NCBI RefSeq assembly: GCF_000967915.1
Contig: NC_022549.1
Span: 595,522 to 659,521 of the forward strand
DNA length: 64,000 nucleotides
Source of the DNA: Paracholeplasma brassicae
Lineage (GTDB): Bacteria; Bacillota_I; Bacilli_A; Acholeplasmatales; UBA5453
Direction: 5' to 3'
The translations under genes and the position numbers were made by a program. Shown here one piece after another: positions 1 through 20,218 of the stretch. Each line of letters starts with the position of its first letter. The stretch's first letter is position 1. Below the pieces are notes generated by a model. That model ran no database searches, was not told where the DNA came from, and saw only the letters and a program-made list of their open reading frames with translations.

Positions 1-1
1 T

Positions 2-1132
2 GAAAAAATCCTTGATAGAAAATTGAGACAAGTACTTGAAGACAAAAATCATCTAATTGAAGCAGTTCAGGATATGACAAAAAAAATGATATCAGACCAC
101 ATTCAAGATATTAATAAGCAGATTAGCGAACTATCCAAAAATGTTGAGAGAAATATGAGTAGCATCAATAACATTAAAAAAAATTTCGACGAAAACGATA
201 ACCATTTCACTAGAAATGTTACATTTCAGTCCAAGTTATCTGAATTAGAAAATCGGACTCAAGAATACATTAATAGCACAGTAGATAATCTAGCAAATAT
301 CGACTTGATTAGATTAATGAATGAAAGAATAAATGAACTTAATGAGGAGCTAAATCAATTAAAGAATCAAACCCCGAAAGAGTTTACACATATTTATGTT
401 CGGAATGACAATTATGAAACAATGGATGATTTTCTAACTGATAATATTGGTGATGTAATTGAAAACTTAGTAAAAGGGGATATTTTTGATGTATTTAGGG
501 AGTATTTAATTGAGATAGTCTACTCGAAGAAACCAATCATATGCTCATCGAGAAATTCAAGATTTTTAACCAGTATCATTTCTTCAATCATGTCAGGAGG
601 CAATTATCATATTATTACCCTAAACATAGACGCATCTACGGATAAGTTGATTGATTTTATAGAGGCTTTGCCTTCAATACAGGGGAATAAAGTCATTTTA
701 ATTAAGAATAAAATAAATGTAACTGATTCAGAATATATTCTTGATTACATCATGAGTAGACCTGTCAATGAGAAATATATATTCGAGATTACCTATGAAA
801 AAGAAGTGTTGTTTATGGCAAACGAAATACTCGACAGATACAATTTTTATTTTGCCAACATTCAAGAAGGTAAAATTGATTATAATTATCTGTACCAATT
901 CGATAAAAACCAAAGGAAATCAACAATTGTAAGTGACTATGTAAAGTCACTAGATGAAATAGGATTAAATCTAAAAAATAAAACATTGATGAATGAAAAC
1001 TTTTATGGTGTTTTTGCATTTTCTATCATTCCTTTTTTATCCATTCATAATAGTGTAGAAAAAAGTGAACTAGTTGATAAATTAACAACACACAGTATTA
1101 GAGCAAAATGTGAGGCTACTTTCAATGAGTAG
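2..1132 (+). CDS. Unknown coiled-coil protein, 5' partial, first gene of the helicase module
   Basis: The reading frame is open to the left edge (frame from base 2), so the true start probably lies outside; a TTG at 23 is the first in-window start but has no convincing ribosome site. Seen: roughly the first 130 residues are charged and heptad-like (coiled coil). Next comes an alpha/beta region containing KKPIICSSRNSRFL followed by a hydrophobic strand (NKVILIKN), spaced like the Walker A and Walker B strands of a P-loop ATPase but without a GK[ST] loop. It overlaps the next gene by 8 bases and so is translationally coupled to it. I do not recognise the family. The pseudo-ATPase reading is inference. 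The position directly upstream of a DUF1998 helicase suggests a dedicated partner of that enzyme. Confidence 0.7.
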   Translation, partial: EKILDRKLRQVLEDKNHLIEAVQDMTKKMISDHIQDINKQISELSKNVERNMSSINNIKKNFDENDNHFTRNVTFQSKLSELENRTQEYINSTVDNLANIDLIRLMNERINELNEELNQLKNQTPKEFTHIYVRNDNYETMDDFLTDNIGDVIENLVKGDIFDVFREYLIEIVYSKKPIICSSRNSRFLTSIISSIMSGGNYHIITLNIDASTDKLIDFIEALPSIQGNKVILIKNKINVTDSEYILDYIMSRPVNEKYIFEITYEKEVLFMANEILDRYNFYFANIQEGKIDYNYLYQFDKNQRKSTIVSDYVKSLDEIGLNLKNKTLMNENFYGVFAFSIIPFLSIHNSVEKSELVDKLTTHSIRAKCEATFNE

Positions 1133-2150
1133 TTCATTTAGGCTCGACAGACTATATAAAACTATATCTGATGACTTAAGAATTTCAAAATATGAAAAAG
1201 AAGATGATTTATCTTATAAAAATAGATTGGTTTACTCTGCAATTGGAAGATGGGTTATGAGTTTGTTTTCTGATAGAGATTTTGAAGAGGATGATACTAG
1301 TAAAGTGTCAAAATCGCATGTGACAATCACGGCAATGGATGTTCTATTATCGTATAAGAAGGTTGATGCTGGGCTTGAGCAATATTTTACTGATGATAGA
1401 GCGTTGATCAATATGATAGAAGAAACTTATCAAAGAGTGGGGTATGTTAACTCAGGGGCGTATAGCTTTAAAAAGCAGAGCAAAACGGCTAGAGTAGCAA
1501 TTTCTAACAAATGTCTATTCATTGATATAGATTCAAATGTTAGAATTAGAGGATTAGGTTTATGGGGTAAATGCTCAGAGAGTGATACGTCTTTATCCGA
1601 TTATCTCTTAGTGAATGAAGAAGCACATATTTATACTGAAAGATTAATAACTTTGCTTCAATACAATGCGTTTGAAGATAATGTAGGAAAAATCGAAATA
1701 TACAATACAAATAAGAATAAATGGGAGTATTACTCGAGCAGGATTGCTTATAAAGCTATGTATTCAATTGTAAGAGTTGATGACGGATTAGATTATAAAA
1801 TTATTAAACACTCAAACGATATTATTTATGCTGCTTCGTTACCGACATTATATACAAAGCAATCAACGGAATTCACTTTTAAACACGAAGTGTGGAGAAT
1901 AATACTTGGTATATGCTCGATTAATAGTAGAAAAGCTAGATGCAACATAAGAATTGTGAATAATGAAGCTGTAATAATCAAGTTTAATGGCTTTATTTTA
2001 CCAGCTTTAGAAGAAAGTATTCTCAAATGTATGGCTTGGCCATTAAATAATTGTTTAAACATTTTTGAATATATAACTGATATATCAATGCTTAAAAGCA
2101 TAATAGTATTATTATCTAGATTATCAATTGAAATTGTAGTGGAGGAATAA
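1125..2150 (+). CDS. Unknown protein of the helicase module (about 341 aa)
   Basis: No family recognised. I chose the ATG at 1125 because GTGAGG lies about 9 bases upstream and the ATGAGTAG junction overlaps the previous stop; a GTG at 1110 would add five residues but has no ribosome site. The protein is mixed alpha/beta with no signal peptide and no clear membrane segment. Near residues 140-155 it has a strand-rich patch (VRIRGLGLWGKC), and its last 60 residues are leucine/isoleucine-rich and helical. One base separates its stop from the helicase start, so the three genes form one operon. By context it is an accessory subunit of the helicase, perhaps for substrate recognition; this is inference only. 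Confidence 0.7.
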   Translation: MSSSFRLDRLYKTISDDLRISKYEKEDDLSYKNRLVYSAIGRWVMSLFSDRDFEEDDTSKVSKSHVTITAMDVLLSYKKVDAGLEQYFTDDRALINMIEETYQRVGYVNSGAYSFKKQSKTARVAISNKCLFIDIDSNVRIRGLGLWGKCSESDTSLSDYLLVNEEAHIYTERLITLLQYNAFEDNVGKIEIYNTNKNKWEYYSSRIAYKAMYSIVRVDDGLDYKIIKHSNDIIYAASLPTLYTKQSTEFTFKHEVWRIILGICSINSRKARCNIRIVNNEAVIIKFNGFILPALEESILKCMAWPLNNCLNIFEYITDISMLKSIIVLLSRLSIEIVVEE

Positions 2151-2151
2151 T

Positions 2152-5100
2152 ATGTCAAACAATCTGGGCATTAAGAAGACACATGACACAATGGTAAATC
2201 GTCTTACAGAGTACATTACGAGTCAATACTTTGGGGATAATCAATTATTGTTAAGTGCATCCGATGAATTATTGAGGAAAGAAGGAATTCTATTTCGAAA
2301 GCCGTTTATAGAATCAAATCAATCTTATGTCAAAGTAAAAGACGGAATACGAAATGCTAACATAGATAGTAACACTAAAAATTTTCTTATATCTTTAATT
2401 GACAATAAACTGGGTGTATTCGATACACCTTTTAAGCATCAAGTAGAAGCTCTGGAAAGTTTTGCAGAAGGAAAGAACCTATTTGTAGCGACTGGTACAG
2501 GCTCTGGAAAAACTGAGTGTTTTATGTGGCCAATAATTTACAAATTAGTTTATGAGGCGATTCATAAAAAGAACACGTGGGAACAAAGAGGCGTTCGTAC
2601 AATCGTTTTATACCCTATGAACGCACTTGTAACAGATCAAATTACAAGATTACGATCTATAATAGGTGACAGGGATAACAAATTCGTGGATATCTTAAGA
2701 GGTTTTTCACCAATCTCAAGAAGGCCACAGTTTGGTATGTACACAGGGAGAACACCTTATCCTGGTGATAGAGTTGATAAGAAGATAAACATAGATATTG
2801 CAAATTCTTATAGAGAAAGCTATTTGATTACTAAAGACTTAACTGCCATTCAAATAGAAGAACAAAGAAAGGATATAGAAGGCCTTAAAAAGATAAATAA
2901 GTATCCTTCTAAGAACATTGAAAAACTTGTTAAAGCATTAGAATCAAATAAACTAGAAGAGTATGATTCATCGGACGATGCAGAACTTATTTTACGATAT
3001 GAAATGCAACAACAAACACCTGATATATTGATTACAAACTATTCTATGCTAGAGTTTATGTTAATTAGGAAAGTAGAGAATAAAATTTGGGATGATACAA
3101 AAAAGTGGTTAAGTCTGAACGATGAAAACAAGTTATTAATCATTATTGATGAGGCACACATGTACTCAGGAGCAAGTGGTGGTGAAGTAGCACTACTTGT
3201 TAGAAGATTATTTTCCAAGCTTGGTATAACACATGAAAAGGTTCAGTTTATTATGACTAGTGCAAGTATGCCAAATGAGGATGAAGAGGACAAAAAATAC
3301 ATTCATGCTTTCTCTGAAGACTTATCAGGTTGTAAATCTGGTAGTTTTGTATACTTGTTTGGTAATAAAGAAGTTATTAAAGTTAACGATAAAGTTCCAT
3401 TTGATTTAAACACTTTGGCAAATTTAGATTTAGATGACACTATATTGGATGAAGTAACCATTGAAAAAAATATTTCTATTTTTGCCAACAATGTTTTTAA
3501 AGAGAATGTTTACAATGATCATAGGATATGGCTTTACGATAACATAACAAAATATGAACCTTTTAATAATTTGATAGAAAACTGTAGAGGTATCGCAACT
3601 TCATATGATGAATTACTAATAAAAACAGTAGGATCATCAACAGAAAAAGGAAGTAGAGCATTTGACAATCTACTGTTGTTAGCCCCCCTTGCAAAAGACA
3701 TTAATGGCAATGTTTTATTCCCAGCTAGAATCCATCTATTTTTTCGAGGTCTTAACGGAATTTATGCATGTTTAAATCCAAACTGTGATTGTAAACACAA
3801 AGGTGATGGAATTAATATAGGAAATTTGTACACTACTAATTATAGTCAGTGTATTAAATGTTATTCAAAGGTCTATGAATTAGTGAATGATAGAAGATGT
3901 GGCTCGCTATTTATTAGAACATTTATTCATAAGAACGCTGTTAATGATTCACAAATAATGTGTTGGAACAAAAAAGGCATTGATGAGAACAACGTAATTA
4001 TCGAGTTTCCATTGTATATAATTCCTAAAGATTACGATATTAGCAAGAGACCAAAAAACACTGAATTAGCTTATTTTGATTTTATTACGGGTAAATTGTA
4101 TTCTTTTTTGATGAATGAAGAAACTTGTATAAAAGTTTTAAAAAGTAATGATTTTGAAGAGAACAATACTATTTTTAAAAGCTGTCCACATTGCGGGAAA
4201 CGATTTAATTTTATTGGTCTATCAGATTTTAGAGTAAAAGGAAATATACCATTTTATAGTATTACAAAAGCACAATTTGACACTCAGCCGATGACAAAAA
4301 CACCCAGTGAGTTTACACCTAATGGAGGAAAGAAGGTATTACTGTTTTCTGACTCACGACAATCTGCGGCAATACTTGCAAGGGACATGACAAAGGTAGC
4401 AGATACTGATTCATTTAGAAGAGCTATATTCTTGGCAATGAAAAAAATATATGATAATAATCAAAAGAATGAATTCCCATTAAATTATTTGTATCCAGCA
4501 TTCGTAGAAGTATGTGTTGAGAATAAACTTAGATTTTTCTATGGAAAAGAACTTGATAAATTCGAAGTAGATAAAGCTAGATTTCTAAGTATTATAGAAA
4601 GATATAAAAAGATGGGCAAGGAAATAAACTATAGTAGATTACATAGTGAATTGAACACCCCTTGTGAAATGTATCAGGCGTATTTAATAGAGTTGTTTTG
4701 TAGTCCTACGGTGAGTTTCTCAAATCTTGGACTAGGATATATAGCACCAGTTGAAGAAAAACTGCAGGATATTCTTTTTGATTTAGATATAAGTACGTTA
4801 ACCGATCTTAAATTCATTAAAATATTCTTGGCCTTTGTCACTCAAACTTTTACCGACTCGTTTTGCTTCGATAACACAGTATCAGAAAGTGTAAGAAAAG
4901 AAGTAAAATATATTAAGGGTAATAGATATGGATTCAACCGTTATGATTCTTATATGAATTCATATATCAAAAATGAGTATCCGAACGAATATGAGAAAAT
5001 ATATGAATCAATTGTTAAAGAATTTTACAGAAAAGAAAATGAGAACTATTTTTTAAATTTAGAGTTTGTTAAAGTGATTTTGACATATAAAAATGACAAT

Positions 5101-7278
5101 AAATGGTTTAAATGTAGTAAATGTGGAAGTATTCATCCATTTAGTATAGGGAATAGTTGTTCTATTTGTGGTGATTCAATAATTTATGAGGAATATCCGC
5201 AGGACATTCGAAAAATAGACTATTGGAGAAAGCCAGTTATTAGCAACGATAATATAAAATCACTTAATACGGAAGAACATACCGCTCAATTATCATTTAA
5301 AGATCAAAAGGTTACAACATGGGCAAAAACAGAAGATTATGAAATGAGGTTTCAAGACGTTAATGTGGAAAGACCATCTAAAACCCCAATTGATATTTTG
5401 AGCTGTACAACAACGATGGAAGTTGGTATTGATATCGGTTCACTTACGGCGATAGGATTAAGAAATGTACCTCCACTTAGAGAGAATTATCAGCAAAGGG
5501 CTGGTCGAGCAGGTAGACGTGGTTCGTCAATTTCAACAATTTCTGTCTATGCACAAGGTGGGCCACATGACACATTTTATTTTAATTCACCAGATAAAAT
5601 CATCAGGGGTAAACTAAGAAAACCTTGGATCGATGTTAAAAATGATAAAATTATATATCGTCATTTTAATCTTGTGTTATTCTCAAGATTTTTTGACAGC
5701 ACATCTTATTCTTTATATGACATAACAATGGAGAAATTTAAAGAAATCTTTGACGATTTTATTAAATATGTTAAGGAGATTCAATTTAGCGAGGTTGAAG
5801 TTAATGAATACTTTATTAATCATAGCATTGAAGTCTTTAAGATAAAACTTGCCAATGATTTGGATAATTTTGTTTCAAGCCAAATAGAAGATAGTAGAAA
5901 GATATTTGATGCCTTGTTTGAAACAGGAATATTACCTACATACTCATTTCCATTGGATGTCATCGAATTCAACATCGAAGATAGTGAAGGGCATATAAAA
6001 CTTGCCCCTCAAAGAGGTATTGATGTTGCATTAAGCGAATATGCACCAGGTAGAACAATTGTCGTTGATAAAAAGACATACAAATCAGCAGGAATATATA
6101 CTCCCTCAAGACTTAAGGGCACTATAAACTTTTTAAAACCTGCTGAACCATACTTTAGAGAGGAAAATGGTTATTATAAAACGATACATGTCTGTCTAAA
6201 TCCGATATGCGGATGGTTTAGCAAAGAAAAACCTCATAACGGAAAATGCCCATTTTGTGGTGAGAGTTTACGGCTTGAATCGGAAAAGAAAATGCTAATT
6301 CCATGGGGATTTGCTCCATTGAATGCAAGAGATATTCCTGAAAGTGAAGCGGAAACGGAGTTTTCATATTCTGATGAACCATGTTACTCTGCGACGCCTT
6401 CTGGTGACCTAAGAAGAACTAATTACTCAAAACTTTCGGTATCTAATAGAAAAAATGAAGAAATCATTATTATGAACAAAGGTATAGAAGAAAATGGATT
6501 TGATGTGTGTAGAGATTGTGGTGCAGCACAACCAAGAGGGACAAAAACATTAAAAGAGAATGGTATAGGTGCACCGTTTACTAGTAAAGGAAATAGAGTA
6601 AGTTGTAATCATAAAAATGTTGAAGAGGGGATTTACTTAGGAACTCGTTTTAGAACTGATATGTTTTTCATGCAGATTGAGCTTGATAAAGAGAAAATCA
6701 GTGATAGAAATGTAATATTAAAATCTGCCTCGGTAACATTGTGTGAAGCTATGAAACTTGCAACAAGTAGAATTTTAGATATTTCATATAATGACTTAAC
6801 CATAGGTTCAAGAATTAGAACAAATGGGAAATTAAAAATCATTGATATATACTTCTATGATAGCCTATCAAGTGGAGCTGGATACTCATCTCAAATAGAA
6901 TCATATTTAGATGAGATAATTACAAACACATTTGACATCTTAGGTAACAATGACGATAGAGATATTTGCAATTATTGGAATCAAAGAGTACAATATCTAT
7001 TTAATAAACAACTAGCTTTTGATCTATTGTATTGGATGACTGAAGCGAAAGTGCCTAGTAAATTTACACAAGAAGAAACATTGGTCTTATCTAAACCATT
7101 AGTGAATATCATGCAAAATGAATTTAAAGCTATGTGTGAGATTTACAATAATAATGTGATTATAAATGCAAAAAAATATGAGATAATTAGAGCACTCCAA
7201 AGGAAAACCGGTAATGAAATCACTGATTTTGAGATAATTCAGGAACTTCCTACTTTAATTGAACAGATATGTAATTAA
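2152..7278 (+). CDS. Large DEAD/DEAH (SF2) helicase with C-terminal DUF1998, DruE/MrfA-like
   Basis: A 1708-residue SF2 helicase. Motifs seen: Walker A TGTGSGKTE near residue 115; TxxxxL-type YPMNAL motif; DEAH at 333-336; motif III SAS; a late motif V region (TTTMEVGIDIGSL); motif VI QQRAGRAGRRG at about 1114-1124. At least four Cys pairs (CLNPNCDC, CPHCGKRF, CSKCG...CSICGD, CLNPICGW...CPFCG) suggest zinc ribbons. The end carries the DUF1998 signature (SSGAGY near 1572). The same architecture occurs in Druantia DruE, DISARM-related helicases and the larger relatives of MrfA/YprA. It starts with ATG after GGAGG. Likely role: DNA-translocating motor of an antiphage module with the two upstream genes. 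The helicase call is firm; the system name is not, because the partners are unrecognised. Confidence 0.9.
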   Translation: MSNNLGIKKTHDTMVNRLTEYITSQYFGDNQLLLSASDELLRKEGILFRKPFIESNQSYVKVKDGIRNANIDSNTKNFLISLIDNKLGVFDTPFKHQVEALESFAEGKNLFVATGTGSGKTECFMWPIIYKLVYEAIHKKNTWEQRGVRTIVLYPMNALVTDQITRLRSIIGDRDNKFVDILRGFSPISRRPQFGMYTGRTPYPGDRVDKKINIDIANSYRESYLITKDLTAIQIEEQRKDIEGLKKINKYPSKNIEKLVKALESNKLEEYDSSDDAELILRYEMQQQTPDILITNYSMLEFMLIRKVENKIWDDTKKWLSLNDENKLLIIIDEAHMYSGASGGEVALLVRRLFSKLGITHEKVQFIMTSASMPNEDEEDKKYIHAFSEDLSGCKSGSFVYLFGNKEVIKVNDKVPFDLNTLANLDLDDTILDEVTIEKNISIFANNVFKENVYNDHRIWLYDNITKYEPFNNLIENCRGIATSYDELLIKTVGSSTEKGSRAFDNLLLLAPLAKDINGNVLFPARIHLFFRGLNGIYACLNPNCDCKHKGDGINIGNLYTTNYSQCIKCYSKVYELVNDRRCGSLFIRTFIHKNAVNDSQIMCWNKKGIDENNVIIEFPLYIIPKDYDISKRPKNTELAYFDFITGKLYSFLMNEETCIKVLKSNDFEENNTIFKSCPHCGKRFNFIGLSDFRVKGNIPFYSITKAQFDTQPMTKTPSEFTPNGGKKVLLFSDSRQSAAILARDMTKVADTDSFRRAIFLAMKKIYDNNQKNEFPLNYLYPAFVEVCVENKLRFFYGKELDKFEVDKARFLSIIERYKKMGKEINYSRLHSELNTPCEMYQAYLIELFCSPTVSFSNLGLGYIAPVEEKLQDILFDLDISTLTDLKFIKIFLAFVTQTFTDSFCFDNTVSESVRKEVKYIKGNRYGFNRYDSYMNSYIKNEYPNEYEKIYESIVKEFYRKENENYFLNLEFVKVILTYKNDNKWFKCSKCGSIHPFSIGNSCSICGDSIIYEEYPQDIRKIDYWRKPVISNDNIKSLNTEEHTAQLSFKDQKVTTWAKTEDYEMRFQDVNVERPSKTPIDILSCTTTMEVGIDIGSLTAIGLRNVPPLRENYQQRAGRAGRRGSSISTISVYAQGGPHDTFYFNSPDKIIRGKLRKPWIDVKNDKIIYRHFNLVLFSRFFDSTSYSLYDITMEKFKEIFDDFIKYVKEIQFSEVEVNEYFINHSIEVFKIKLANDLDNFVSSQIEDSRKIFDALFETGILPTYSFPLDVIEFNIEDSEGHIKLAPQRGIDVALSEYAPGRTIVVDKKTYKSAGIYTPSRLKGTINFLKPAEPYFREENGYYKTIHVCLNPICGWFSKEKPHNGKCPFCGESLRLESEKKMLIPWGFAPLNARDIPESEAETEFSYSDEPCYSATPSGDLRRTNYSKLSVSNRKNEEIIIMNKGIEENGFDVCRDCGAAQPRGTKTLKENGIGAPFTSKGNRVSCNHKNVEEGIYLGTRFRTDMFFMQIELDKEKISDRNVILKSASVTLCEAMKLATSRILDISYNDLTIGSRIRTNGKLKIIDIYFYDSLSSGAGYSSQIESYLDEIITNTFDILGNNDDRDICNYWNQRVQYLFNKQLAFDLLYWMTEAKVPSKFTQEETLVLSKPLVNIMQNEFKAMCEIYNNNVIINAKKYEIIRALQRKTGNEITDFEIIQELPTLIEQICN

Positions 7279-7410: not shown

Positions 7411-7908
7411 ATGGCAAAAGCATACGATCAAACATTCAAAAATAAGATAATAAAAGAACGACTAAGTGGATTAAGCGTTAAATCAATTTCAATCAAACAT
7501 GGTGTTTCTGTTTCGGTGACTGGTAAGGCGGTTAGCTGTAGTTTAAAAAACAAAGTCGAACTAATGACTTATTTAAGTGACGGTCATATCCCAATCGATA
7601 ATAATTTAGATGAGCGAGGTATTAAGCCTTTCGTGATTAACCGAAAGAACTTCTTATTCTCTAATACTGAAAAAGGTGCAGAAGCATCAAGCATGTATAT
7701 GAGCATCATTCAAACAGCAAAAACAAACGGACTAGACACAAATAAGTACTTGGCGTACCTATTTGAAAACCTTTATAAGATTCAGATCTTTGAAAGTGAC
7801 TATCAAGACCCAGTCAAATTAGACGATAAATTTAAGATAATGGCGCATTTGCTCCCATGGGATGACAACATCAAGACACAATTTAAAATGAAAGAAACCT
7901 CTAGATAG
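7411..7908 (+). pseudogene. Internally deleted IS66 transposase (OrfA N-terminus fused to TnpC C-terminus)
   Basis: A 165-residue ORF in two unrelated parts. Residues 1 to about 35 (KAYDQTFKNKIIKERLSGLS...) look like the helix-turn-helix start of an IS66 accessory OrfA. From about residue 47 the sequence is the C-terminal end of the IS66 DDE transposase, with the hallmark PIDNNLDERGIKPFVI, KNFLFSNTEKGAEAS and TAKTNGLD segments. The catalytic core, normally about 300 residues, is missing, so the product cannot transpose the element by itself. The ORF is otherwise intact, suggesting a clean deletion. It is bounded by the inverted repeats and ends in a hairpin. It may be mobilised in trans by a full IS66, none of which is in the window. 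Confidence 0.85.
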
Positions 7909-9004: not shown

Positions 9005-12000
9005 GTGGACATTTTGCCGGTTATTTTTTTAGATTTTTATACAAACTTAGAAGCGAAAGAAAAAAACAATTATAAAAACAAAAACATATACAGCACACCT
9101 TTGATGGAACAATTTGAACTCATAAATAATAGACTACCTTTAAATACAAGATTTAGTGATATAAGGTCTTTTGTTGAGAATGCATTTCCATCAGGATTAA
9201 CAAAGAGGTACTATATTTCTTGCCCGAATTATAAAAGAGAAGTAATACAACGTACAACTGCAAGCTTTTTAAGAAATGTTGTTCTTAGAGCCGATGGCTC
9301 TGAACTATCCAAAAGACTACCAAACAATATGAGTGTTATATTAATTGGAGATATCATTGAAGGTGGAAAGCTGAAGATGCTATCCGTTAAAGGCATAGAA
9401 CTCATCGATGAAGGTTTTACGAAATATGGTGAAACACTAATTATGAACTCTTACGCTTGTTCTGCATTTCAAAAGCACACATGGTCAATTCAACACATCG
9501 ATTACAATGAAACCTATTTTACGCCTAATACAATACTTAACTTGATAGAAACGAACTATCCAGTTAAAAACTATGATACTGTCATCAAGTTCTATGATAA
9601 ATGGGATAATTACTTGAAGTTTAGAGAATATTATTTGAACACACAAACGCAAAGACACTTTCCTATCTCCCATGTAGAATATAAAGAAGCATACTCAATC
9701 AATAGAAGAAGATATCAAAGAAACAAAGAATTGTATGACGCCAACCTACTTGATTCACATCACGATTTTTCAAAAGGCGAACTCATCATTTTAGAAAAAG
9801 AACTTGATGATACCGAACCATACCATCTAATTAGAGTAGATATTGATTACAATCGACTTAAATATTTTGAAGAGACGGTTGAGAAAAATGAACGAAAAAA
9901 AAATAAGATTGAAACGAGCATTCGTTCTTTTGCACGCGATAACTTAGCGTTATCAGATGTTCCTCCAAAAAACGAGAAGTATAACGAGCAATTAAGAAAC
10001 AGTTTTCAATTGGAACAACGATTCAAAATTATAAAAAGCGAAATTGAGCCTGATTGCGCTGATCTTGAACAAAAACATGCGAAAATGATCAAAGAACAAT
10101 TAGCTGCAATCGATGCTGTTTATCAACGGAAAATTGAAAGTGAAACATCAACAGCTTTAACAATCAAAGAACAAGAGTTATCAAACGCTTTAAAATCAGA
10201 ACTGGATGAGTACACTACTTTATTGAACAATCAACTTAATAATGATGTAAGAGAAATGAATGACAGCGTTATTAAGCAAAAGTATAACGATGCAGTTGAT
10301 AGATTAAAAAAACAATTGAAAAAGGATTATGATCAGCAGTTAAACGCACTTAATCAAAAACTTAAAAAAGAAAAGAATAAAGACAAGCAAGAAACTATAA
10401 GAAGCCAGATGAGCGAGCTTAAAAAAGCATATGAGAATAATGTTGAACAGGCATATCAAAACGTTGACATTAAGCAAATGTTTGTTGATAGAAATGAAGG
10501 TTTGGTTCAATCAAGAAGAGTCGAATTACAAACTCAACAAAAACATAATCTTAATGAGTTCGCTAAAAATTTCCAACAACAACGAATCAATCATTATCAA
10601 GATGTAATAAGAAAAGATAAGAATACTAAGAAACAAGAACTTGAAGAAGAATTAAGAAAGCAAATAGCCAAGCGTGTCAGGGAAGAATCAATTGTTCGCT
10701 TTTCACTTTATTTCAAAACGGATCCAGAAAACCAGTATGGTGTTGTAAATACGCTTCATAATAAGAAGTATCGCCATCTTATATATAATAATCGAGCTGA
10801 ACAGGCAAAAATCGATAGACAAAGAAATGCACTTGAATCATTTTTTGAAGGCAATGTAAAGAATCCATATTTATCTACTTTTCTCTTTTCTCCAGAAGAT
10901 CTAAGTCCGAACTTATACCAAAATCGTGATTGGAACTGGTTTTTAGAAAAACTAAACGACAAACAAAAAGAAGCTGTCAAAAGAGCCGTTACTAGTAATG
11001 GTGTGTTTTTACTACAGGGCCCTCCAGGAACAGGTAAAACTCAAGTTATTGCTGAAATAGTAGGTCATCTTGTTAAAGATGGTAAAAAGGTTTTAATTTC
11101 TAGTGAAACCCATAAGGCAATTGATAATGTCTTTGAACGCTTACCAAAAATTGCAGAGATTAGACCCATTCGACTCATGACATCCCAATCAGGAAAAGAC
11201 AGTGATTTTAGTCCTGAAAATTTAGTAGATAACTTATATTACAATATTGCTGAACAGATGAAAAAGACCATTAGATCATATGAGAACTTTACTGAATATA
11301 AAGAAAAATTTAATCTTGACTTTAAAGAACTAAAAGTTCTAAATCAAATACTAACTAAGAACAAAATGAAAAGCGATGAAATTTCTCAAAAAATCACTGA
11401 CTTTGAAAAGTCATTTGATGAGTTGAAAGAAGAACGAAGCTCAATTGTTGATAAAAAAGAAGCATATGTTTATGAGAAAGATAAATATTTCAACACTTAC
11501 AAAAGAATTCAAAATCATCTATTTAGTTTTGATGAGGATCTAGACATGCAAAGCATTGATGAATACAAGAAAGCAATCGAAAAAGCAGTTGATAGTTCTG
11601 TTTTTAATATTGCTAATACGGATGATTTCATAAGAACAGTCTTTAATGCTAAACCCCAAGAAATAGTCAGTGAATTAAGCCAAATTCAATCAAATAAAAT
11701 ATCATATGAACTTCAAGAACAAAAGAAAGAGTTGGGGATAAGAATTCTTGAGTTACTTGATCAAAATGATGAAAAATCAATTGAAACTCGCAGACAAAAA
11801 CAAAAAGAGTATCTTGAAATAAACGATAAAATCAAGAGTTTAGATGACAATTTAGATTTATCAGAAATGACCATTGGTAGAATATATAATCCAAATTGGT
11901 TAAGTGCAAATCATAAAGTCGCTGTCGAACATTTAGAAAAAATTCAAACGACAATGTTAAAGATGAAAAATGACATTACCAGTCAATTAAATGCTCAAAT

Positions 12001-13546
12001 CCAAAAACAAGCGGACAAGATTATCATGATGAACAACAAATTGATTGAGCTTGATTCAAAACTCAAGGATATCTCTAATATCATTTCGGAATTACGTGAA
12101 GATCAGTCTTATCATGATTATCAAGACAGTAAAAACAAGCTAGAAATCAAACTCGAAAACTTCTTTAAGCAGTTTGATGTTGTTGCTAACTACAAATCTA
12201 TAGATGAAGCACTTAATGTGATTCAATTTGAGTGGGAAGACTTAGAATTGAATTTTAAAGAAAAAGAAAAAGAGAATCAAACAAAAATACCTGTATATAA
12301 AAAAATCAGCGACTATATTCAAAAAGAAGAAATTATACTAGAAGATAGAAAACATTATACGAAGCCATTGTTTGATACAGTAAATTTGTTTGGAACAACT
12401 ACAACAAGCCGTGACAGGTTTGATGAAAAATCTATGAATGAACTTGAAGCATATAATCTTGGAGAACTTGACTTAAGAAAACAAGGTATAGATGTCGTTA
12501 TCATTGATGAGGTCAGCAAATCTAGTTTTATTGAATTACTCATTCCTATTTTATATGGAAAGACAGTTATCTTGGTTGGTGATCATCGCCAACTACCGCC
12601 GATGTATGAATATCGCAATTTTAGAGATGAGGATTATGAAGGACTTGATCCAAATATCATTAATTCAGCTATTAATAGGCGATATATTTCTATGTATGAG
12701 GAGAGTTTCTTTAAAACTTTGTTTGAAAAAGTACCTAACGATTATAAAATTATGCTCACTAAGCAATATAGAAGTCACGAGCATATTATGAATGTATTCA
12801 ATCACTTTTATAATAAAAATCTTGAACTCGGTGACATTGCCCAAAACAGCAACAAAAAGCATTATTTAAATATTGAAGGGAATCAAAGATTAATTATTGA
12901 GCAAGACAAACATATTTATTTTGTTGACAGTAAAGACTATGAAAATCGTTCTGAAGATTCAACATCTATTCAAAACAAAGGTGAAGCAGATATAATTACT
13001 GAACTCTTAAGAAAGATTGATGAAGGATATCAAAAAAACAAAGATTTTAACCCAAGAATCAATAAGCATCAACGCATTGATGAGCGTATGAGTATTGGTG
13101 TAATTTGTACGTATGGAGATCAAGCACGTCTTATTAAACAAAGACTAAAGGCGAACAAACTAACAAGTTTCAAATCATTTAATGAAAAAAGCGATTCTAG
13201 ATTAATCATAAGTACTGTTGATGATTTTCAAGGTGATGAAAGAGATATTATCATCGTGTCTTTGGTTCGAAATCCAATAGATCCAAGTCGAAGTAATCCA
13301 GATTTTATTAAAGCATATCAAAGAATCAATGTCGCATTTTCAAGAGCCAGAAGATTACTCATTATTGTTGGAAGCAAAGATTACTTAATTCGTAAAGGGG
13401 TCATTGATTTACCTGATGTTATGGGCGATTCAAATAATGATCAAAAGAATTTTAGAGTGTATGAGAAAGTAATTGATACGATTAAAATATATGGCAAAGT
13501 ATTAGATGATGTTGATATCATCAAAGAAAGGGGGAGTAACAAGTGA
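9005..13546 (+). CDS. UPF1/DNA2-like SF1 helicase with long coiled-coil insertions
   Basis: A 1513-residue protein. The first 300 residues are unrecognised. A lysine/glutamine-rich coiled coil spans about 290-560. The SF1 core starts with Q-motif-like LNDKQKEAVKRA and Walker A GPPGTGKT (672-679). A second coiled-coil insertion of roughly 400 residues precedes Walker B (IIDEVSKSS, D1168/E1169), motif III GDHRQLPP, and motifs V/VI (STVDDFQGDERDIIIVS; INVAFSRAR). This is the AAA_11/AAA_12 helicase layout of UPF1, DNA2 and many bacterial defence helicases. GTG 9005 and TTG 9014 are both plausible starts after AAGGAAGTAGGTGG. It overlaps the next gene by 4 bases. Likely role: nucleic-acid translocation or sensing at the centre of the operon. 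Confidence 0.9.
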   Translation: MDILPVIFLDFYTNLEAKEKNNYKNKNIYSTPLMEQFELINNRLPLNTRFSDIRSFVENAFPSGLTKRYYISCPNYKREVIQRTTASFLRNVVLRADGSELSKRLPNNMSVILIGDIIEGGKLKMLSVKGIELIDEGFTKYGETLIMNSYACSAFQKHTWSIQHIDYNETYFTPNTILNLIETNYPVKNYDTVIKFYDKWDNYLKFREYYLNTQTQRHFPISHVEYKEAYSINRRRYQRNKELYDANLLDSHHDFSKGELIILEKELDDTEPYHLIRVDIDYNRLKYFEETVEKNERKKNKIETSIRSFARDNLALSDVPPKNEKYNEQLRNSFQLEQRFKIIKSEIEPDCADLEQKHAKMIKEQLAAIDAVYQRKIESETSTALTIKEQELSNALKSELDEYTTLLNNQLNNDVREMNDSVIKQKYNDAVDRLKKQLKKDYDQQLNALNQKLKKEKNKDKQETIRSQMSELKKAYENNVEQAYQNVDIKQMFVDRNEGLVQSRRVELQTQQKHNLNEFAKNFQQQRINHYQDVIRKDKNTKKQELEEELRKQIAKRVREESIVRFSLYFKTDPENQYGVVNTLHNKKYRHLIYNNRAEQAKIDRQRNALESFFEGNVKNPYLSTFLFSPEDLSPNLYQNRDWNWFLEKLNDKQKEAVKRAVTSNGVFLLQGPPGTGKTQVIAEIVGHLVKDGKKVLISSETHKAIDNVFERLPKIAEIRPIRLMTSQSGKDSDFSPENLVDNLYYNIAEQMKKTIRSYENFTEYKEKFNLDFKELKVLNQILTKNKMKSDEISQKITDFEKSFDELKEERSSIVDKKEAYVYEKDKYFNTYKRIQNHLFSFDEDLDMQSIDEYKKAIEKAVDSSVFNIANTDDFIRTVFNAKPQEIVSELSQIQSNKISYELQEQKKELGIRILELLDQNDEKSIETRRQKQKEYLEINDKIKSLDDNLDLSEMTIGRIYNPNWLSANHKVAVEHLEKIQTTMLKMKNDITSQLNAQIQKQADKIIMMNNKLIELDSKLKDISNIISELREDQSYHDYQDSKNKLEIKLENFFKQFDVVANYKSIDEALNVIQFEWEDLELNFKEKEKENQTKIPVYKKISDYIQKEEIILEDRKHYTKPLFDTVNLFGTTTTSRDRFDEKSMNELEAYNLGELDLRKQGIDVVIIDEVSKSSFIELLIPILYGKTVILVGDHRQLPPMYEYRNFRDEDYEGLDPNIINSAINRRYISMYEESFFKTLFEKVPNDYKIMLTKQYRSHEHIMNVFNHFYNKNLELGDIAQNSNKKHYLNIEGNQRLIIEQDKHIYFVDSKDYENRSEDSTSIQNKGEADIITELLRKIDEGYQKNKDFNPRINKHQRIDERMSIGVICTYGDQARLIKQRLKANKLTSFKSFNEKSDSRLIISTVDDFQGDERDIIIVSLVRNPIDPSRSNPDFIKAYQRINVAFSRARRLLIIVGSKDYLIRKGVIDLPDVMGDSNNDQKNFRVYEKVIDTIKIYGKVLDDVDIIKERGSNK

Positions 13547-15699
13547 GCATCTTTAAATTTGAAACGTCTTTCCCTTTTCCCATTGTAAAGGTAACAACAT
13601 TAATTCATCATACAGAAGTATCTAAACCTACGGGTGTAAGTTATATTATCTTAGTGTTAATAAATGAATCAGCGAACAAAAAAGAAAAATTAAGTAATTT
13701 ATTAATCCAATTTGGCGTCCCTGTAGACTTACATGGGATATTTGCAGATGAGATATATAAGTTGATCCATGAACTAGAAATCATTAAATGTAAACCCTAT
13801 GAGTATAATAGAACTCACTTTTCAGAGTATTTAGTAGGGAACTTTGTTTTTACTGAAAAAGGGAAAAAAGTTTTTAGAGACGAGTTAATTCCAGCTGCAA
13901 AATCGATTGAATCAAAACAAGAAGTATTTTATGATCCTGCTCAAAATCTATTGATGGATAAGATTCCTTCAGATTGGAAAATTGGTCGAATCGATAGTTC
14001 CATACTTCCGAATAAATTGGCAGAGAAGTTCGAGTATAAAAACATAAACCAGTTAGAAGACTATCTCAATAGCGTCAAAGGAAAAGGAATCATTGTTAAA
14101 AAGGATGAAATCATTACAGATGTTTCTATCATGAGCAATGAATACTTTTATACAACATATCCGATAACATTATCGATAGATAGTAAAAATCATTCAATTG
14201 ATTTTGATTTTGGAAATCGTCAGTTGCAAACTTTCTTTGAAACATACTATGATAGTAAGTTAATTGCAGACGGTCTAGGTGTCAAAAGAAAGTTTAAGTT
14301 TAAGGGTAATCAGCCAGCATTATTAGATGCTAAAGTGATTGAACAAGGTATTTTGATGTTACCTGAAGATTATCAAGAAATCTTAAATAAAACAGCATCA
14401 GTCATAATCACAAAATCAAATTACATGCCTAAACAAACAACACATGTCATCCAAGCCAGTTCGCTTATATCAAGGATTAACTCGAATATTGAGACAATTC
14501 ACATCAGCGGTCAAGAAAAAATAAATGCATATATGCCTGTCCAAATACCTCTAATCAACAAGTCAACAAAAGGGAATATAAACATTAATCTGTTAGTTGA
14601 AGTCACATTTAAGGATGATGAGAGAAAAGCGATGACAAATGGTCTGATGGAGATTTTTAAGACTTATTCTATTGAAAATGCAAAAGAATGTATACATATC
14701 TTCAAAACTCTAAATGATAGACAATCTCTAGAATTGATGATGGATAAATACATTACTAAAGATGCCGAAGAAAGTATTAACATACTAAAAGAAATTAAAG
14801 ATACAACTGACATCACATTTATCAAGGATTGGTTTAACCGAAAGGTACAGAATTTATTTGATGAATACTTCAAGACCTTACCGATAAAAACGATAGAACA
14901 TCAGATTGCTATAGGTGGCTGGTTAATTAAACTCCTGAACATACAAAATATCACGATGATTCACAAAATTATTGAAAGCAATCCCAATGTAGAGAATGAG
15001 AAACTGTTTCAATTATTAGAATCTCTCAATTATTCACTCAATGATATTTTTTCTCAAATCAATATTTTGAAAGAGTTCACCCAAAAAATCATCAATAATG
15101 AAAAAATAAATACAATAGGTAACTTTTCAAATTTGATTAAGACAATCCAGTTTAGTTTGAATCAACTGAGGGGATTAACAGATATTAGAAAACCTTACGA
15201 GTTCGTCATTAAGGAAGATATCGACCGAACGAAGTTTCAAGAGGTTTACAGCGGATTTTCTACTAAACTTGAAGAATTGCTCAAGTATGAGAAATTTGAT
15301 GTCAGTGCATTTACAGAACTTAAAGAATTTGATAAGCATTTAAAGTATTTAAGTCGCGTGTTTACAGAAGAGAAAAATGCAACTAATAATCCCAAAGGTA
15401 TTGATCAATCATTTATCACATCGAAGATTAACAAAAAAGAGCACTTCACTGCCATTGTATATCTTTTTGCAAAACTCGAGTGGATACTTAAGAATCAGTA
15501 TAAGCTAAGTGGTAACACTGAATCTATGATTAATGAACTCAAAGATGCGGAAGAATTGAAAGAGTTCGTTCCTGAATTGCATCAATTAAGAAAAACAAGA
15601 AATAGTTTGATTCATCCAACTAGTGCCGAGGTAGTTATCGATTCTGGTAATATAACCAAATGGTCAGATATTGTATTTAAGGAGGTATTGAAAGCATGA
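13543..15699 (+). CDS. Large protein with C-terminal HEPN-like (Rx4H) domain
   Basis: 718 residues, GTG start after GGGGGAG, overlapping the helicase by 4 bases and the next gene by 4. The N-terminal 120 residues include a winged-helix-like stretch (IYKLIHELEIIK ... FVFTEKGKKVF). The middle is unrecognised, mixed then helical. The last about 90 residues look like a HEPN domain: a helical hairpin (IVYLFAKLEWILKNQY) followed by RNSLIHP, where R686 and H691 give the Rx4H signature of HEPN RNases. If active, the protein would cleave RNA as toxin or effector under control of the helicase and AAA+ partners. HEPN folds also occur as inactive substrate-binding modules, so activity is inference. Confidence 0.7.
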   Translation: MSIFKFETSFPFPIVKVTTLIHHTEVSKPTGVSYIILVLINESANKKEKLSNLLIQFGVPVDLHGIFADEIYKLIHELEIIKCKPYEYNRTHFSEYLVGNFVFTEKGKKVFRDELIPAAKSIESKQEVFYDPAQNLLMDKIPSDWKIGRIDSSILPNKLAEKFEYKNINQLEDYLNSVKGKGIIVKKDEIITDVSIMSNEYFYTTYPITLSIDSKNHSIDFDFGNRQLQTFFETYYDSKLIADGLGVKRKFKFKGNQPALLDAKVIEQGILMLPEDYQEILNKTASVIITKSNYMPKQTTHVIQASSLISRINSNIETIHISGQEKINAYMPVQIPLINKSTKGNININLLVEVTFKDDERKAMTNGLMEIFKTYSIENAKECIHIFKTLNDRQSLELMMDKYITKDAEESINILKEIKDTTDITFIKDWFNRKVQNLFDEYFKTLPIKTIEHQIAIGGWLIKLLNIQNITMIHKIIESNPNVENEKLFQLLESLNYSLNDIFSQINILKEFTQKIINNEKINTIGNFSNLIKTIQFSLNQLRGLTDIRKPYEFVIKEDIDRTKFQEVYSGFSTKLEELLKYEKFDVSAFTELKEFDKHLKYLSRVFTEEKNATNNPKGIDQSFITSKINKKEHFTAIVYLFAKLEWILKNQYKLSGNTESMINELKDAEELKEFVPELHQLRKTRNSLIHPTSAEVVIDSGNITKWSDIVFKEVLKA

Positions 15700-16766
15700 G
15701 TCATGTAGCAACAATTAACTATGAAGCACTATCCATAGAGGCTAAAGCAACATGTGAACAGGCGCTTAAACAATTATGCAAAATTGATGAACTACTTGCA
15801 AGAATTAAAGATAAAGCTAGTATGCTTATCACGGATAGAGTTCGTTCTTATGAATCGTTTTTAAAAAAAGAACAAGCAAATATTACAGCTGAGCTCAATC
15901 AAATCATTTCCAAAGCAAATGCAAAAACTAGAGAAGCTAGTATAGCAAGTAATGCGAATAACTTATCAAAGATAGTTGATAATTTAACCTCATATCGCTT
16001 AAATGCGATGGAAGATTTAATCAATGATGAACTTATTAATGCTACAAATAGACATCAACAATCGCTAAGTAATCAAGCACTAGGCATTATTAGTATTAGT
16101 CAAGATATTTTAAAAAAACTTGAAACAATTGATGACTTCATGTTAAGAGAAAGTATCTATCAAGTTGCATTGCAAGGTGAAAACGTAAATAAGTCATGGA
16201 CAGAATTACAACTACTAGGAAAAAACCGATTGAATGCGCAACTAAAAACATCACTTGAAAAGCATAAAGATAAAATCATGTTGGAAATCCAAAAAGAGCT
16301 TAAAGATGCTAAAGTAGATGTTCAAGTGATTGAAAACATCTCTTCATCAAAGATCCAAAATATATCTGATATAGAAACTTTTCGTAATAAAGCAACTTCA
16401 GAAATTATTGGAGAATCTGTTCGCAAAGAAACCTTGAAAGTTATTATGAAGACCGTTGAAACACGAGGGTTTATTGTTGATAAGAAGAATATAAAAATTG
16501 ACCGTGAAAAGAATGAAGTAAGGTTTATTGCTCAAAAGGTTAGTGGTGAAAGAGCAGAGTTTCGTATTTATTTGGATGGCAAATTTATCTATAAGTTTGA
16601 TGGCTACGAAGGTCAAGCATGTCAAAAAGACATTGAGCCTTTCATGAAGGATTTGGCGGATATTTATGATATTAAAGTTGTTAAACAAGTCGATAATTGG
16701 AGTAACCCAGATAAAAATCAATCGATGAAGTATCAAACAGTTAATAAAAATAAGGGAACGAATTAG
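15696..16766 (+). CDS. Unknown coiled-coil protein of the helicase-AAA+ operon
   Basis: 356 residues, ATG start overlapping the previous stop (ATGA), preceded by AAGGAGG. About residues 15-230 are helical and rich in K/E/N/A with coiled-coil character. From about 235 to 330 there is an alpha/beta part (RKETLKVIMKTVETRGFIVD, VRFIAQKVSGERAEFRIYLDG) that may form a compact beta-sheet domain. No signal peptide, membrane span or catalytic motif is visible and I do not recognise the family. The 11-base gap before the AAA+ ATPase gene suggests the two act together, for example as adaptor and unfoldase; that is inference. Confidence 0.65.
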   Translation: MSHVATINYEALSIEAKATCEQALKQLCKIDELLARIKDKASMLITDRVRSYESFLKKEQANITAELNQIISKANAKTREASIASNANNLSKIVDNLTSYRLNAMEDLINDELINATNRHQQSLSNQALGIISISQDILKKLETIDDFMLRESIYQVALQGENVNKSWTELQLLGKNRLNAQLKTSLEKHKDKIMLEIQKELKDAKVDVQVIENISSSKIQNISDIETFRNKATSEIIGESVRKETLKVIMKTVETRGFIVDKKNIKIDREKNEVRFIAQKVSGERAEFRIYLDGKFIYKFDGYEGQACQKDIEPFMKDLADIYDIKVVKQVDNWSNPDKNQSMKYQTVNKNKGTN

Positions 16767-16777
16767 GAGGGGTATTT

Positions 16778-18601
16778 ATGTCAATACTAACGAGTTTTAA
16801 TCGCATCAAACGAGAAACTGGGATTAAAAGAGCTGTTGTAATTGAAGGCAATGTTGGAGACGTATTTTTAAATGACAAAAAACGCATTGTCACTCTAAAA
16901 GACTATTTAATGGATATGCTTAAAGATATGGCATATGAAGATGTAATCTATTGGGATAGAGTCGATGGTGTTGATGGCGACTTGACAAAACTTGATCTCG
17001 TTGATGATGTTGAAGTTAAAGGCGATACTTATGAATTTGATGATGAAGAAGACGATAAAAAAACAGGGTCTGGTCTATTTAAGAAACCTGCGGAAATCTT
17101 TAATCTAGTCTTCAAGAATATGATTAATCCAAAAAGAAAAGTAGCTTTTGTACTCAATTGGGCAGACTATCTATTTGGCAATGGGAATCAATTGATGGAT
17201 GATGAAAGAGAGTATTTAACATTATTAGGAAAAGCTATCAAAGATCGTAAAGTTGACTATCTATCAGAAGATACTAACGGAAGTGTAGTTATTTTAATCG
17301 CAAATAAATTATCGATGTTTCCAATCTCTTTTTACCAATCTAACCCAGAAGTGACAACGATTACCCTACAAAAGCCTGATCGTTTAGAAAGGGAAGAAAT
17401 GCTTGCTAAGATTGAAACAGCTTTTGATGTTAAGCTAAAACCAGGCGAAACTCTTCTTACGAGTGAGAAAAAAAGTGAGTATATTGATATGCTCGATGAT
17501 TTTACAAATCGTGAGATTATTCAACTTTCAAAACTATCTAGAAAAGAAGGTAAGATGACCTTCAATAAGCTTTTTTACCTGTTTAAATATGGTGAAAAAG
17601 ATAATCCTTGGGAAAAACTGGATTATAACGATGTTAAAAACATCAAGAAAAAGTTATCCGAACGCGTTGTTGGTCAAGATGAAGCCATCGAAAAGATTGA
17701 AAAGATCATCGTTAAAGCATATATGGGTTTAACTGGTCTTCATAAATCATCAAGTCGTTCGATGCCTAAAGGAATCTTATTCTTCGTTGGACCTACTGGA
17801 GTAGGTAAAACAGAGTTATCTAAAACTTTAGCACAATTCTTATTCGGTGACGATCAAGCATGTATTCGTTTTGATATGAGCGAATATGGGACTGACAACT
17901 CCGATCAAAAATTAATTGGAGCACCTCCAGGATATGTAGGATATGAGGAAGGTGGCAGATTGACAAATGCCATTAAGGAAAAACCTTTTAGTGTCATACT
18001 TTTTGATGAAATTGAAAAAGCAGCCAAGCCTAATCCAAGAATCCTAGATATATTTTTACAAATCCTAGAAGATGGACGTTTAACTGACAGTAAAGGTGAA
18101 ACGGTCTATTTCAGCGAGAGCATCATCATTTTCACATCTAACCTAGGTGCAAGTGAAGTTAAACCTTCATCTAATCATGAAGAAGTAGCAAAAGAATTCA
18201 TCACAATCGTTAAAAACTATTTTGACAATGAAATCAAAAGACCAGAGCTTCTTGGTCGTATAGGGTATAACAATATTGTACCGTTCAATTTCATTCAAGA
18301 CAAAGAATTCATGGTGAAGATTGCTCGTTCAAAACTTAGACCGATTCAAATGGGTATATTGGAAAAATATCGCATTGATCTTGTTTTTGAAGATGAACTG
18401 AAGTTTGTTAACTATATTTTAAGTGATGCGGATATTACCAAAGGTGGCCGTGACATTCTTAATGCTATTAATGATAAGTTACTAGATGAACTTGCGATGT
18501 ATCTATTTAAAAACAAACAAGAACTAACTGCTCTTAAAGGTCAATCAATACTAGTTAAGACAAATAACAAAGGATTGGAATTTAGTTTTGAAGTCGAGTA
18601 A
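16778..18601 (+). CDS. Clp-type AAA+ ATPase (ClpA/ClpB D2-like) with unusual N-terminus
   Basis: 607 residues, ATG after AGGAGGGG. Residues 1-270 are a divergent N-terminal region (RAVVIEGNVGDVFLND, then an acidic EFDDEEDDKK linker and an ATPase-like ILIANKLSMFPI part). From about 290 comes a clear Clp/Hsp100 AAA+ module: RVVGQDEAIEKI, Walker A GPTGVGKT (338-345), MSEYG, the pore-loop-like PPGYVGYEEGG, Walker B LFDEIEKA (D410/E411), sensor FTSNLGAS and the arginine-containing ELLGRIGY. A small C-terminal ClpB D2 domain follows. There is no N-terminal Clp_N repeat and no ClpP tripeptide that I can identify. Probably a specialised unfoldase or remodeller serving this operon rather than a housekeeping chaperone. 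Its last codons overlap the radical SAM gene. Confidence 0.85.
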   Translation: MSILTSFNRIKRETGIKRAVVIEGNVGDVFLNDKKRIVTLKDYLMDMLKDMAYEDVIYWDRVDGVDGDLTKLDLVDDVEVKGDTYEFDDEEDDKKTGSGLFKKPAEIFNLVFKNMINPKRKVAFVLNWADYLFGNGNQLMDDEREYLTLLGKAIKDRKVDYLSEDTNGSVVILIANKLSMFPISFYQSNPEVTTITLQKPDRLEREEMLAKIETAFDVKLKPGETLLTSEKKSEYIDMLDDFTNREIIQLSKLSRKEGKMTFNKLFYLFKYGEKDNPWEKLDYNDVKNIKKKLSERVVGQDEAIEKIEKIIVKAYMGLTGLHKSSSRSMPKGILFFVGPTGVGKTELSKTLAQFLFGDDQACIRFDMSEYGTDNSDQKLIGAPPGYVGYEEGGRLTNAIKEKPFSVILFDEIEKAAKPNPRILDIFLQILEDGRLTDSKGETVYFSESIIIFTSNLGASEVKPSSNHEEVAKEFITIVKNYFDNEIKRPELLGRIGYNNIVPFNFIQDKEFMVKIARSKLRPIQMGILEKYRIDLVFEDELKFVNYILSDADITKGGRDILNAINDKLLDELAMYLFKNKQELTALKGQSILVKTNNKGLEFSFEVE

Positions 18602-19276: not shown

Positions 19277-20170
19277 ATGACTTATCTAACAGAAGTAAAA
19301 TTAAATCTTAAACCTATTTTTCACCTATTTTTGAAGATTAGCGGTATAGTATTTTCAGTTTTTGCAATTTTGGTGACTTTTATATCTTTAGAAGATATTG
19401 GTCTAACTAATATTTGGCATAAAATCGGAATTATTATATCAATTTTAGTACTTTCGCTAATAATGAGTATGATTTTAATTTTGTTTTTATTCAAGAAAAA
19501 TCGAATATGGTCTAATGGGAAAAACAAAGTATTTGCAAGTTATGGAGATCTAATAAAATATGCCTTTAAAGTAAAAGAGAAAAACAAGAGGATAATTGTA
19601 ATACCTGTAAATGACACATTTGAAACAATTGTTGATGTTGGAGGCGAAAAAGTAGTAAATCCTCTTGTTTCACCCAATTCATTACACGGAATATGGATAG
19701 AAGAATTCTGTAAAAAATATGAAATTACTGTCAATGAACTAAATTCAAGGATAAGTGCGAATTTAAAATTACAAAATCGAAAACCAGTTCAAATTTACAG
19801 TGAAGATGAAAAACGACGCGGAAATAAGGAAAAATATGATTTAGGAACAGTTGCGATACTTAATGCAGGTAATACTATATTTTATTTAGTTGCAATTTCA
19901 GAATTTGATGAGAAAAATAATGCACAGTCTAATAAAATATATATTAGAAAAGCTGTCGAAACACTTATTGAGTTTTATGATGAAAATGGACAAGGGTTTC
20001 CTCTGTATATGCCACTTATGGGGACGGGAACTTCTAGAGCAAAACTTACTCATAAACAATCTTTAAAGTTGATAAAATCTGGTATTTTTGCTTTCGAAGA
20101 AAAGATAAATGGCCAAATAAATATTATCGTTTTTCATAAAGATAGAGATAAAATTTCAATATTTGATTAA
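19277..20170 (+). CDS. thsA: Thoeris type II-like ThsA: two-TM protein with macro-like domain
   Basis: 297 residues; ATG after AGAGGTGATGTCAA. Two transmembrane helices lie at about 13-35 and 46-72, followed by a soluble domain from about 80: IIVIPVNDTFETIVDVGG, LVSPNSLHGIWIEEF and PLYMPLMGTGTSRA. This pattern fits the DUF6430/macro-like domain found in TM-macro ThsA effectors. In type II Thoeris the TIR enzyme makes a nucleotide signal (reported as histidine-ADP-ribose) that the macro domain binds, and the membrane part then kills or arrests the infected cell. The TIR-like gene 48 bases downstream supports the assignment. Recognition is from motif memory, not a search. Confidence 0.8.
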   Translation: MTYLTEVKLNLKPIFHLFLKISGIVFSVFAILVTFISLEDIGLTNIWHKIGIIISILVLSLIMSMILILFLFKKNRIWSNGKNKVFASYGDLIKYAFKVKEKNKRIIVIPVNDTFETIVDVGGEKVVNPLVSPNSLHGIWIEEFCKKYEITVNELNSRISANLKLQNRKPVQIYSEDEKRRGNKEKYDLGTVAILNAGNTIFYLVAISEFDEKNNAQSNKIYIRKAVETLIEFYDENGQGFPLYMPLMGTGTSRAKLTHKQSLKLIKSGIFAFEEKINGQINIIVFHKDRDKISIFD

Positions 20171-20218
20171 AGATCTAGATTTTTTACAATTAATGTAATT
20201 TAAAAAAGGAGAAACAGC

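What the first reader, a model, noticed from the sequence alone, without database searches (positions are those of the whole stretch)
2..7278. Three-gene DUF1998 helicase module with two unrecognised partners
A DruE/MrfA-like helicase is coupled to two upstream genes I cannot assign. Druantia subtypes differ precisely in these accessory genes, so this may be an unlisted subtype or a separate system.
Basis: partly seen in the sequence, partly recalled or inferred. Interest (0 to 1): 0.65.

Follow-up and report, generated by a model that had tools for sequence, protein, structure and literature searches.

The report
Druantia-like phage-defence operon lacking druA
The "unrecognised" genes are the known Druantia type I partners druC and druD, with druB just outside the window, so this is a recognisable Druantia type I-like anti-phage operon; its one unusual feature is that it, like its whole mainly Firmicute branch, lacks the first Druantia gene, druA.

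Summary
The open reading frames are real, but the module has four genes, not three. Sequence left of the window completes gene 1 (516 aa) and adds a gene (500 aa) ending 3 bp before it. PADLOC identifies the helicase as DruE1 (E=0, 1666 bits) and gene 2 as DruD (5.8e-23). Gene 1 is DruC and the added gene DruB, shown through relatives and family profiles. What remains is a variant. DruA (PF14236) is absent from the window's genome and from all 48 genomes tested that carry this helicase clade, while two control plasmids match. All 64 loci with room carry druB-C-D-E. The helicases form a supported clade apart from four other type I-class DruE. No fifth partner is conserved; 14 loci, mostly Clostridia, have a C5 methylase and/or restriction endonuclease directly upstream. 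DruC carries a coiled coil and an AAA-like domain without a Walker A motif (0 of 74). Best mechanism (inferred): DruB, DruC and DruD sense or scaffold, DruE translocates on invading DNA; the effector step is unknown. Interest is modest: a DruA-less variant of a known system.

The parts
1..1132 (+). druC, C-terminal 376 aa of a 516-aa protein (whole gene L002:18104-19654, about G000:C1:595103-596653): N-terminal helical region, coiled coil, C-terminal AAA-like domain without Walker A. The preceding operon gene druB (500 aa) lies wholly left of the window at L002:16598-18100 (about G000:C1:593597-595099).
   Evidence: PADLOC DruC1 weak for the protein itself (0.006) but 2.1e-11 for family members; family HMM hits P. 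putida DruC at 7.8e-13; fold of the L005 homologue; 0 of 74 with Walker A. druB: family members match PADLOC DruB1 down to 6.8e-43; family HMM hits P. putida DruB at 3.7e-13
1125..2150 (+). druD (341 aa from ATG 1125; a GTG at 1110 is also possible)
   Evidence: PADLOC DruD1 E=5.8e-23 over residues 9-337
2152..7278 (+). druE, DEAH SF2 helicase with MrfA Zn-binding (MZB/DUF1998) domain, 1708 aa
   Evidence: PADLOC DruE1 E=0, 1665.6 bits, next best DruE2 581.8 bits; Pfam DEAD, Helicase_C, MZB; GxGKT-type and DEAH motifs in 79 of 79 relatives

Best explanation
The locus is a Druantia type I-like anti-phage operon, druB-druC-druD-druE, of a mainly Firmicute lineage that has no DruA. Shown: the identity of the four genes, their co-conservation and the absence of DruA. 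Inferred: DruB (zinc-finger-like N terminus) and DruD sense or recruit, DruC (coiled coil plus a probably catalytically dead AAA-like domain) scaffolds, and DruE loads on ssDNA-containing or replicating phage DNA and uses ATP to translocate on and unwind it, blocking phage replication. No active nuclease was recognised in any of the four proteins, so the damaging step is either the helicase action itself, a cryptic nuclease in DruB or DruD, or a host or neighbouring nuclease.
For: DruE1 and DruD1 PADLOC matches. DruB1 and DruC1 matches by family members. Profile matches to the DruB and DruC of a canonical DruABCDE plasmid locus of Pseudomonas putida. Four genes in 64 of 64 loci with room. No DruA in own genome nor in 48 of 48 relatives, with two positive controls at about 1e-82. 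Helicase clade apart from four type I-class controls, 100% local support. Neighbours are defence genes: type I RM upstream, Thoeris downstream. Mechanistic analogy: Druantia III DruE is a helicase-nuclease acting on ssDNA-containing intermediates, with its partner as likely sensor (PMC13192584); type I DruE has a predicted inactivated Vsr domain (PMC12458937).
Against: The window's own DruB matches no PADLOC model and its DruC only at 0.006, so those two assignments rest on relatives and position. The link between the DruC families covers only part of the protein. No function was tested. Loss of DruA might leave a system that is inactive or does something else, although conservation across the clade argues against inactivity. 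The tree is FastTree only and long branches meet among the outside rows.
Confidence: 0.85

Rival explanations
1. It is a distinct, unlisted defence system that merely shares a DruE-like helicase.
For: DruA is missing throughout the clade; the window's DruB and DruC are barely or not seen by PADLOC models; the helicases form their own clade.
Against: DruD matches at 5.8e-23 and DruE1 at E=0, far above DruE2, E3 and E4; DruB and DruC families match type I models and P. putida type I proteins in the same gene order.
Confidence: 0.07
2. It is a decayed canonical Druantia I that recently lost druA and is non-functional in this genome.
For: DruA is absent; a truncated IS66 transposase lies just downstream.
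Against: All four frames are intact; the same DruA-less set is kept in 64 of 64 loci over many genera; near relatives also lack DruA genome-wide.
Confidence: 0.05
3. DruBCDE works as an accessory of an adjacent restriction-modification system rather than alone.
For: 14 loci carry a C5 methylase and/or an Eco47II- or EcoO109I-type endonuclease directly upstream in the same direction; here HsdR ends 353 bp upstream.
Against: The RM type differs between clades and most loci have no RM gene adjacent; in L060 the two genes before druB look like methionyl-tRNA synthetase and a tRNA uracil methyltransferase; RM genes are common in any defence island.
Confidence: 0.12

Closest known systems
Druantia type I (druABCDE)
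   Same: DruE1, DruD1, DruB and DruC homologues in the same order B-C-D-E, tightly coupled
   Different: No DruA in the operon or the genome; helicase in a separate clade; DruB and DruC diverged beyond most models
Druantia types II (druMFGE), III (druHE) and IV (DruE, DruF, DruL)
   Same: Share the DruE helicase core; some clostridial relatives of this clade carry a C5 methylase upstream, of the same broad family as DruM of type II
   Different: DruE2, E3 and E4 models score far below DruE1; no DruH; type IV per PMC8565338 is defined by DruF and DruL, not matched here
ARMADA, BRIGADE, DISARM, Dpd (YprA-family systems, PMC12458937)
   Same: YprA-family DUF1998 helicase
   Different: No BrxHII helicase, PglX methylase or deazaguanine genes in the operon; DrmA and DpdJ models match only the helicase core, weakly

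Membership tests
Druantia type I | DruE helicase of the type I class | tested here: met
   PADLOC DruE1 E=0, 1665.6 bits versus 581.8 for DruE2
Druantia type I | DruD | tested here: met
   DruD1 5.8e-23, near full length
Druantia type I | DruC | tested here: met
   own protein only 0.006; 17 of 41 family members match DruC1, best 2.1e-11; family HMM to P. putida DruC 7.8e-13
Druantia type I | DruB | tested here: met
   own protein no match; family members match DruB1, best 6.8e-43; family HMM to P. putida DruB 3.7e-13
Druantia type I | DruA (DUF4338, PF14236) | tested here: not met
   0 matches in own genome and in 48 of 48 genomes of the clade; controls W01 and W02 match at 5.8e-82 and 1.2e-82
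Druantia type I | protects against phage | not testable with these tools
   needs an experiment
Druantia type III | DruH partner | tested here: not met
   no DruH match in the PADLOC scan of the operon proteins
DISARM / Dpd | their dedicated components besides the helicase | tested here: not met
   only helicase-core cross matches

The most novel reading that the evidence does not exclude
DruA-less druBCDE is a distinct, stable Druantia subtype in which DruA is dispensable or replaced, and in some Clostridia it is built into one operon with an exchangeable type II restriction-modification pair (C5 methylase plus Eco47II- or EcoO109I-type endonuclease), giving a helicase system that borrows its nuclease from a swappable RM module.
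Probability: 0.2. Interest if true: 0.55.

Novelty: new variant of a known kind. Interest (0 to 1): 0.3.

Why it matters
If DruBCDE defends without DruA, then DruA is an add-on and the minimal type I machine is four proteins, which would simplify work on the still unsolved type I mechanism. It also shows that the PADLOC models tested here miss or nearly miss DruB and DruC in this lineage, so automated annotation would probably report this operon as incomplete.

Tried and rejected
Separate-system reading: rejected after PADLOC and profile matches. DruA elsewhere in the genome: not found. The 400-aa genes upstream of druB in several Clostridia looked like DruA by size but are C5 methylases. A conserved fifth partner: none; the most widespread neighbour family is the C5 methylase in 13 of 81 loci, 12 of them upstream. 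Fold of DruB (L005 homologue, mean pLDDT 72): no confident PDB match. Fold of DruC: best matches are AAA+/STAND/clamp-loader proteins, none below E=0.001. Sequence search of DruC against PDB gave essentially coiled-coil matches. DNA search for the type I DruE of a gammaproteobacterial genome in E. coli complete genomes: no match. DruD against the Nitrosococcus 360-aa partner: no similarity. The original Druantia paper is not held.

Full report
Observation. The window lies at 595522-659521 of a single-contig genome of 1.88 Mb. Its left end holds the C-terminal 376 aa of an open frame (<1-1132), a frame at about 1125-2150 and a 1708-aa frame at 2152-7278. Sequence fetched from the left completes gene 1 to 516 aa and shows a fourth gene of 500 aa ending 3 bp before it. 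The four genes run 500, 516, 341 and 1708 aa with spacings of 3, -8 and 1 bp. The nearest upstream frame is a type I restriction HsdR, 353 bp away. Promoter and terminator scans of that gap gave nothing beyond chance.

Identity. PADLOC gives DruE1 for the helicase (E=0, 1665.6 bits; next DruE2, 581.8 bits) and DruD1 for gene 2 (5.8e-23, residues 9-337). Gene 1 gives only DruC1 at 0.006 and the 500-aa gene gives nothing. Pfam adds DEAD, Helicase_C and the MrfA Zn-binding domain to the helicase. A search of one genome per species with the helicase brought in 80 related loci. Iterated profile searches in those loci found the 500-aa family in 71 frames, the gene 1 family in 80 and the gene 2 family in 81, and all 64 loci with room upstream of the helicase (the window's own included) carry all three. 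Scanned one by one, members of the 500-aa family match DruB1 (best 6.8e-43) and members of the gene 1 family match DruC1 (best 2.1e-11). A canonical druABCDE locus on a Pseudomonas putida plasmid supplied an independent check: the family profiles hit its DruB at 3.7e-13, its DruC at 7.8e-13 and its DruE at E=0. The operon is therefore druB-druC-druD-druE.

DruA. The DruA family (PF14236) has no match in the window's genome. Because nothing rang in that search's controls, it was repeated over 48 genomes carrying this helicase clade together with two plasmids known to carry druA: 0 of 48 genomes match, and both plasmids match at about 1e-82. Many of these genomes are draft assemblies, so a single absence proves little, but 48 of 48 is consistent. 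In a helicase tree the 81 rows of this lineage form a clade with 100% local support, apart from the P. putida, Nitrosococcus, another gammaproteobacterial and a haloarchaeal DruE. The tree is FastTree only, long branches meet among the outside rows, and the loci were sampled by similarity to the window's helicase, so the root position and the completeness of the clade are not secure. The clade is mainly Firmicutes, with a few members in other groups (Bifidobacterium, Methanogenium, Succinivibrionaceae, Thermoguttaceae, Prevotella).

Other partners. No fifth family is conserved in these neighbourhoods. The most widespread neighbour is a C5 cytosine methylase (13 of 81 loci, 12 of them upstream). 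In 13 loci an Eco47II-like or EcoO109I-like endonuclease gene ends within about 50 bp of druB. In the tree most of these RM-carrying loci fall in two Clostridial groups, and each group contains both endonuclease types. The nearest relatives of the window's operon have none of this. In L060 the genes before the module look like housekeeping genes, which points to the four genes as a self-sufficient unit.

Protein features. DruE keeps its GxGKT-type and DEAH motifs in 79 of 79 relatives. No nuclease domain was seen in DruE by Pfam; Bell et al. (PMC12458937) report a predicted inactivated Vsr domain in type I DruE. DruB has invariant C39, C42, F58, H60 and C70 near the N terminus; its predicted fold (L005 homologue, mean pLDDT 72) has no confident PDB match. 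DruC, modelled on the L005 homologue (mean pLDDT 80.5), has an N-terminal helical part, a long coiled coil and a C-terminal alpha/beta domain. The closest solved folds are AAA+/STAND proteins and clamp loaders, all weak (best E 1.5e-3). None of 74 DruC sequences has a Walker A motif, so if the domain is AAA-derived it is probably catalytically dead. Bell et al. describe an inactivated McrB-like partner with a coiled coil in Druantia type II; a parallel with DruC is my inference.

Mechanism. For type III, DruH is the likely sensor and DruE a helicase-nuclease acting on ssDNA-containing intermediates (PMC13192584); a mycobacterial type III system is triggered by a tail protein and blocks phage DNA circularisation (PMC13316683). 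By analogy, DruB, DruC and DruD would sense infection and position DruE, which then translocates on phage DNA. For type I the cutting step is not identified, and here no candidate nuclease was recognised. This part is inference.

Context. The operon sits in a defence island that starts just after a tRNA-Leu gene with an N6 methylase and a type I RM system, and continues after an IS66 remnant with a helicase-led four-gene cluster and a Thoeris ThsA-ThsB pair.

Verdict. The partners are recognised Druantia type I components, so the finding is largely explained. What is left is a DruA-less variant, conserved across a clade, that existing models detect only in part. I found no paper in the held library that describes it, but the original Druantia paper and its supplement are not held, so novelty is claimed only modestly.

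Noticed in passing
L012, L015, L016, L017, L020, L030 (Eco47II type); L023, L024, L025, L028, L034, L035, L041 (EcoO109I type), just upstream of druB: C5 cytosine methylase plus an Eco47II- or EcoO109I-type endonuclease directly upstream of druBCDE in the same direction; the endonuclease type differs between close relatives while the methylase family stays the same.
   Followed up: partly
window 19277-20707: Thoeris pair: ThsA macro-domain protein and ThsB TIR protein.
   Followed up: partly
window 9005-18601: Co-directional cluster: 1513-aa AAA_11/AAA_12 helicase (MkoA-like in PADLOC), 718-aa and 356-aa proteins without family, and a ClpB-like AAA_2 ATPase of 607 aa; possibly another defence system.
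   Followed up: no
L002:7432-16244 (left of the window): N6 methylase fused to a specificity-like domain right after tRNA-Leu, then HsdM, HsdS, a 140-aa membrane-like protein and HsdR.
   Followed up: no
window 7411-7908: Truncated IS66 transposase with an HTH-like N terminus directly after druE.
   Followed up: no
L066 (Anaerobiospirillum succiniciproducens): Two druBC copies in one locus and two DruE1 genes in the genome.
   Followed up: no
L086 and L105: In L086 an annotated DruA, and in L105 a 413-aa gene in the same place, precede a 952-955-aa and a 360-364-aa protein with no detectable similarity to DruB, DruC or DruD of this clade, followed by a DruE1-class helicase: another partner set for type I-class DruE.
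   Followed up: partly
L006 and L010, just upstream of druB: A DUF2971 protein in the same position in two close relatives of the window's operon.
   Followed up: no
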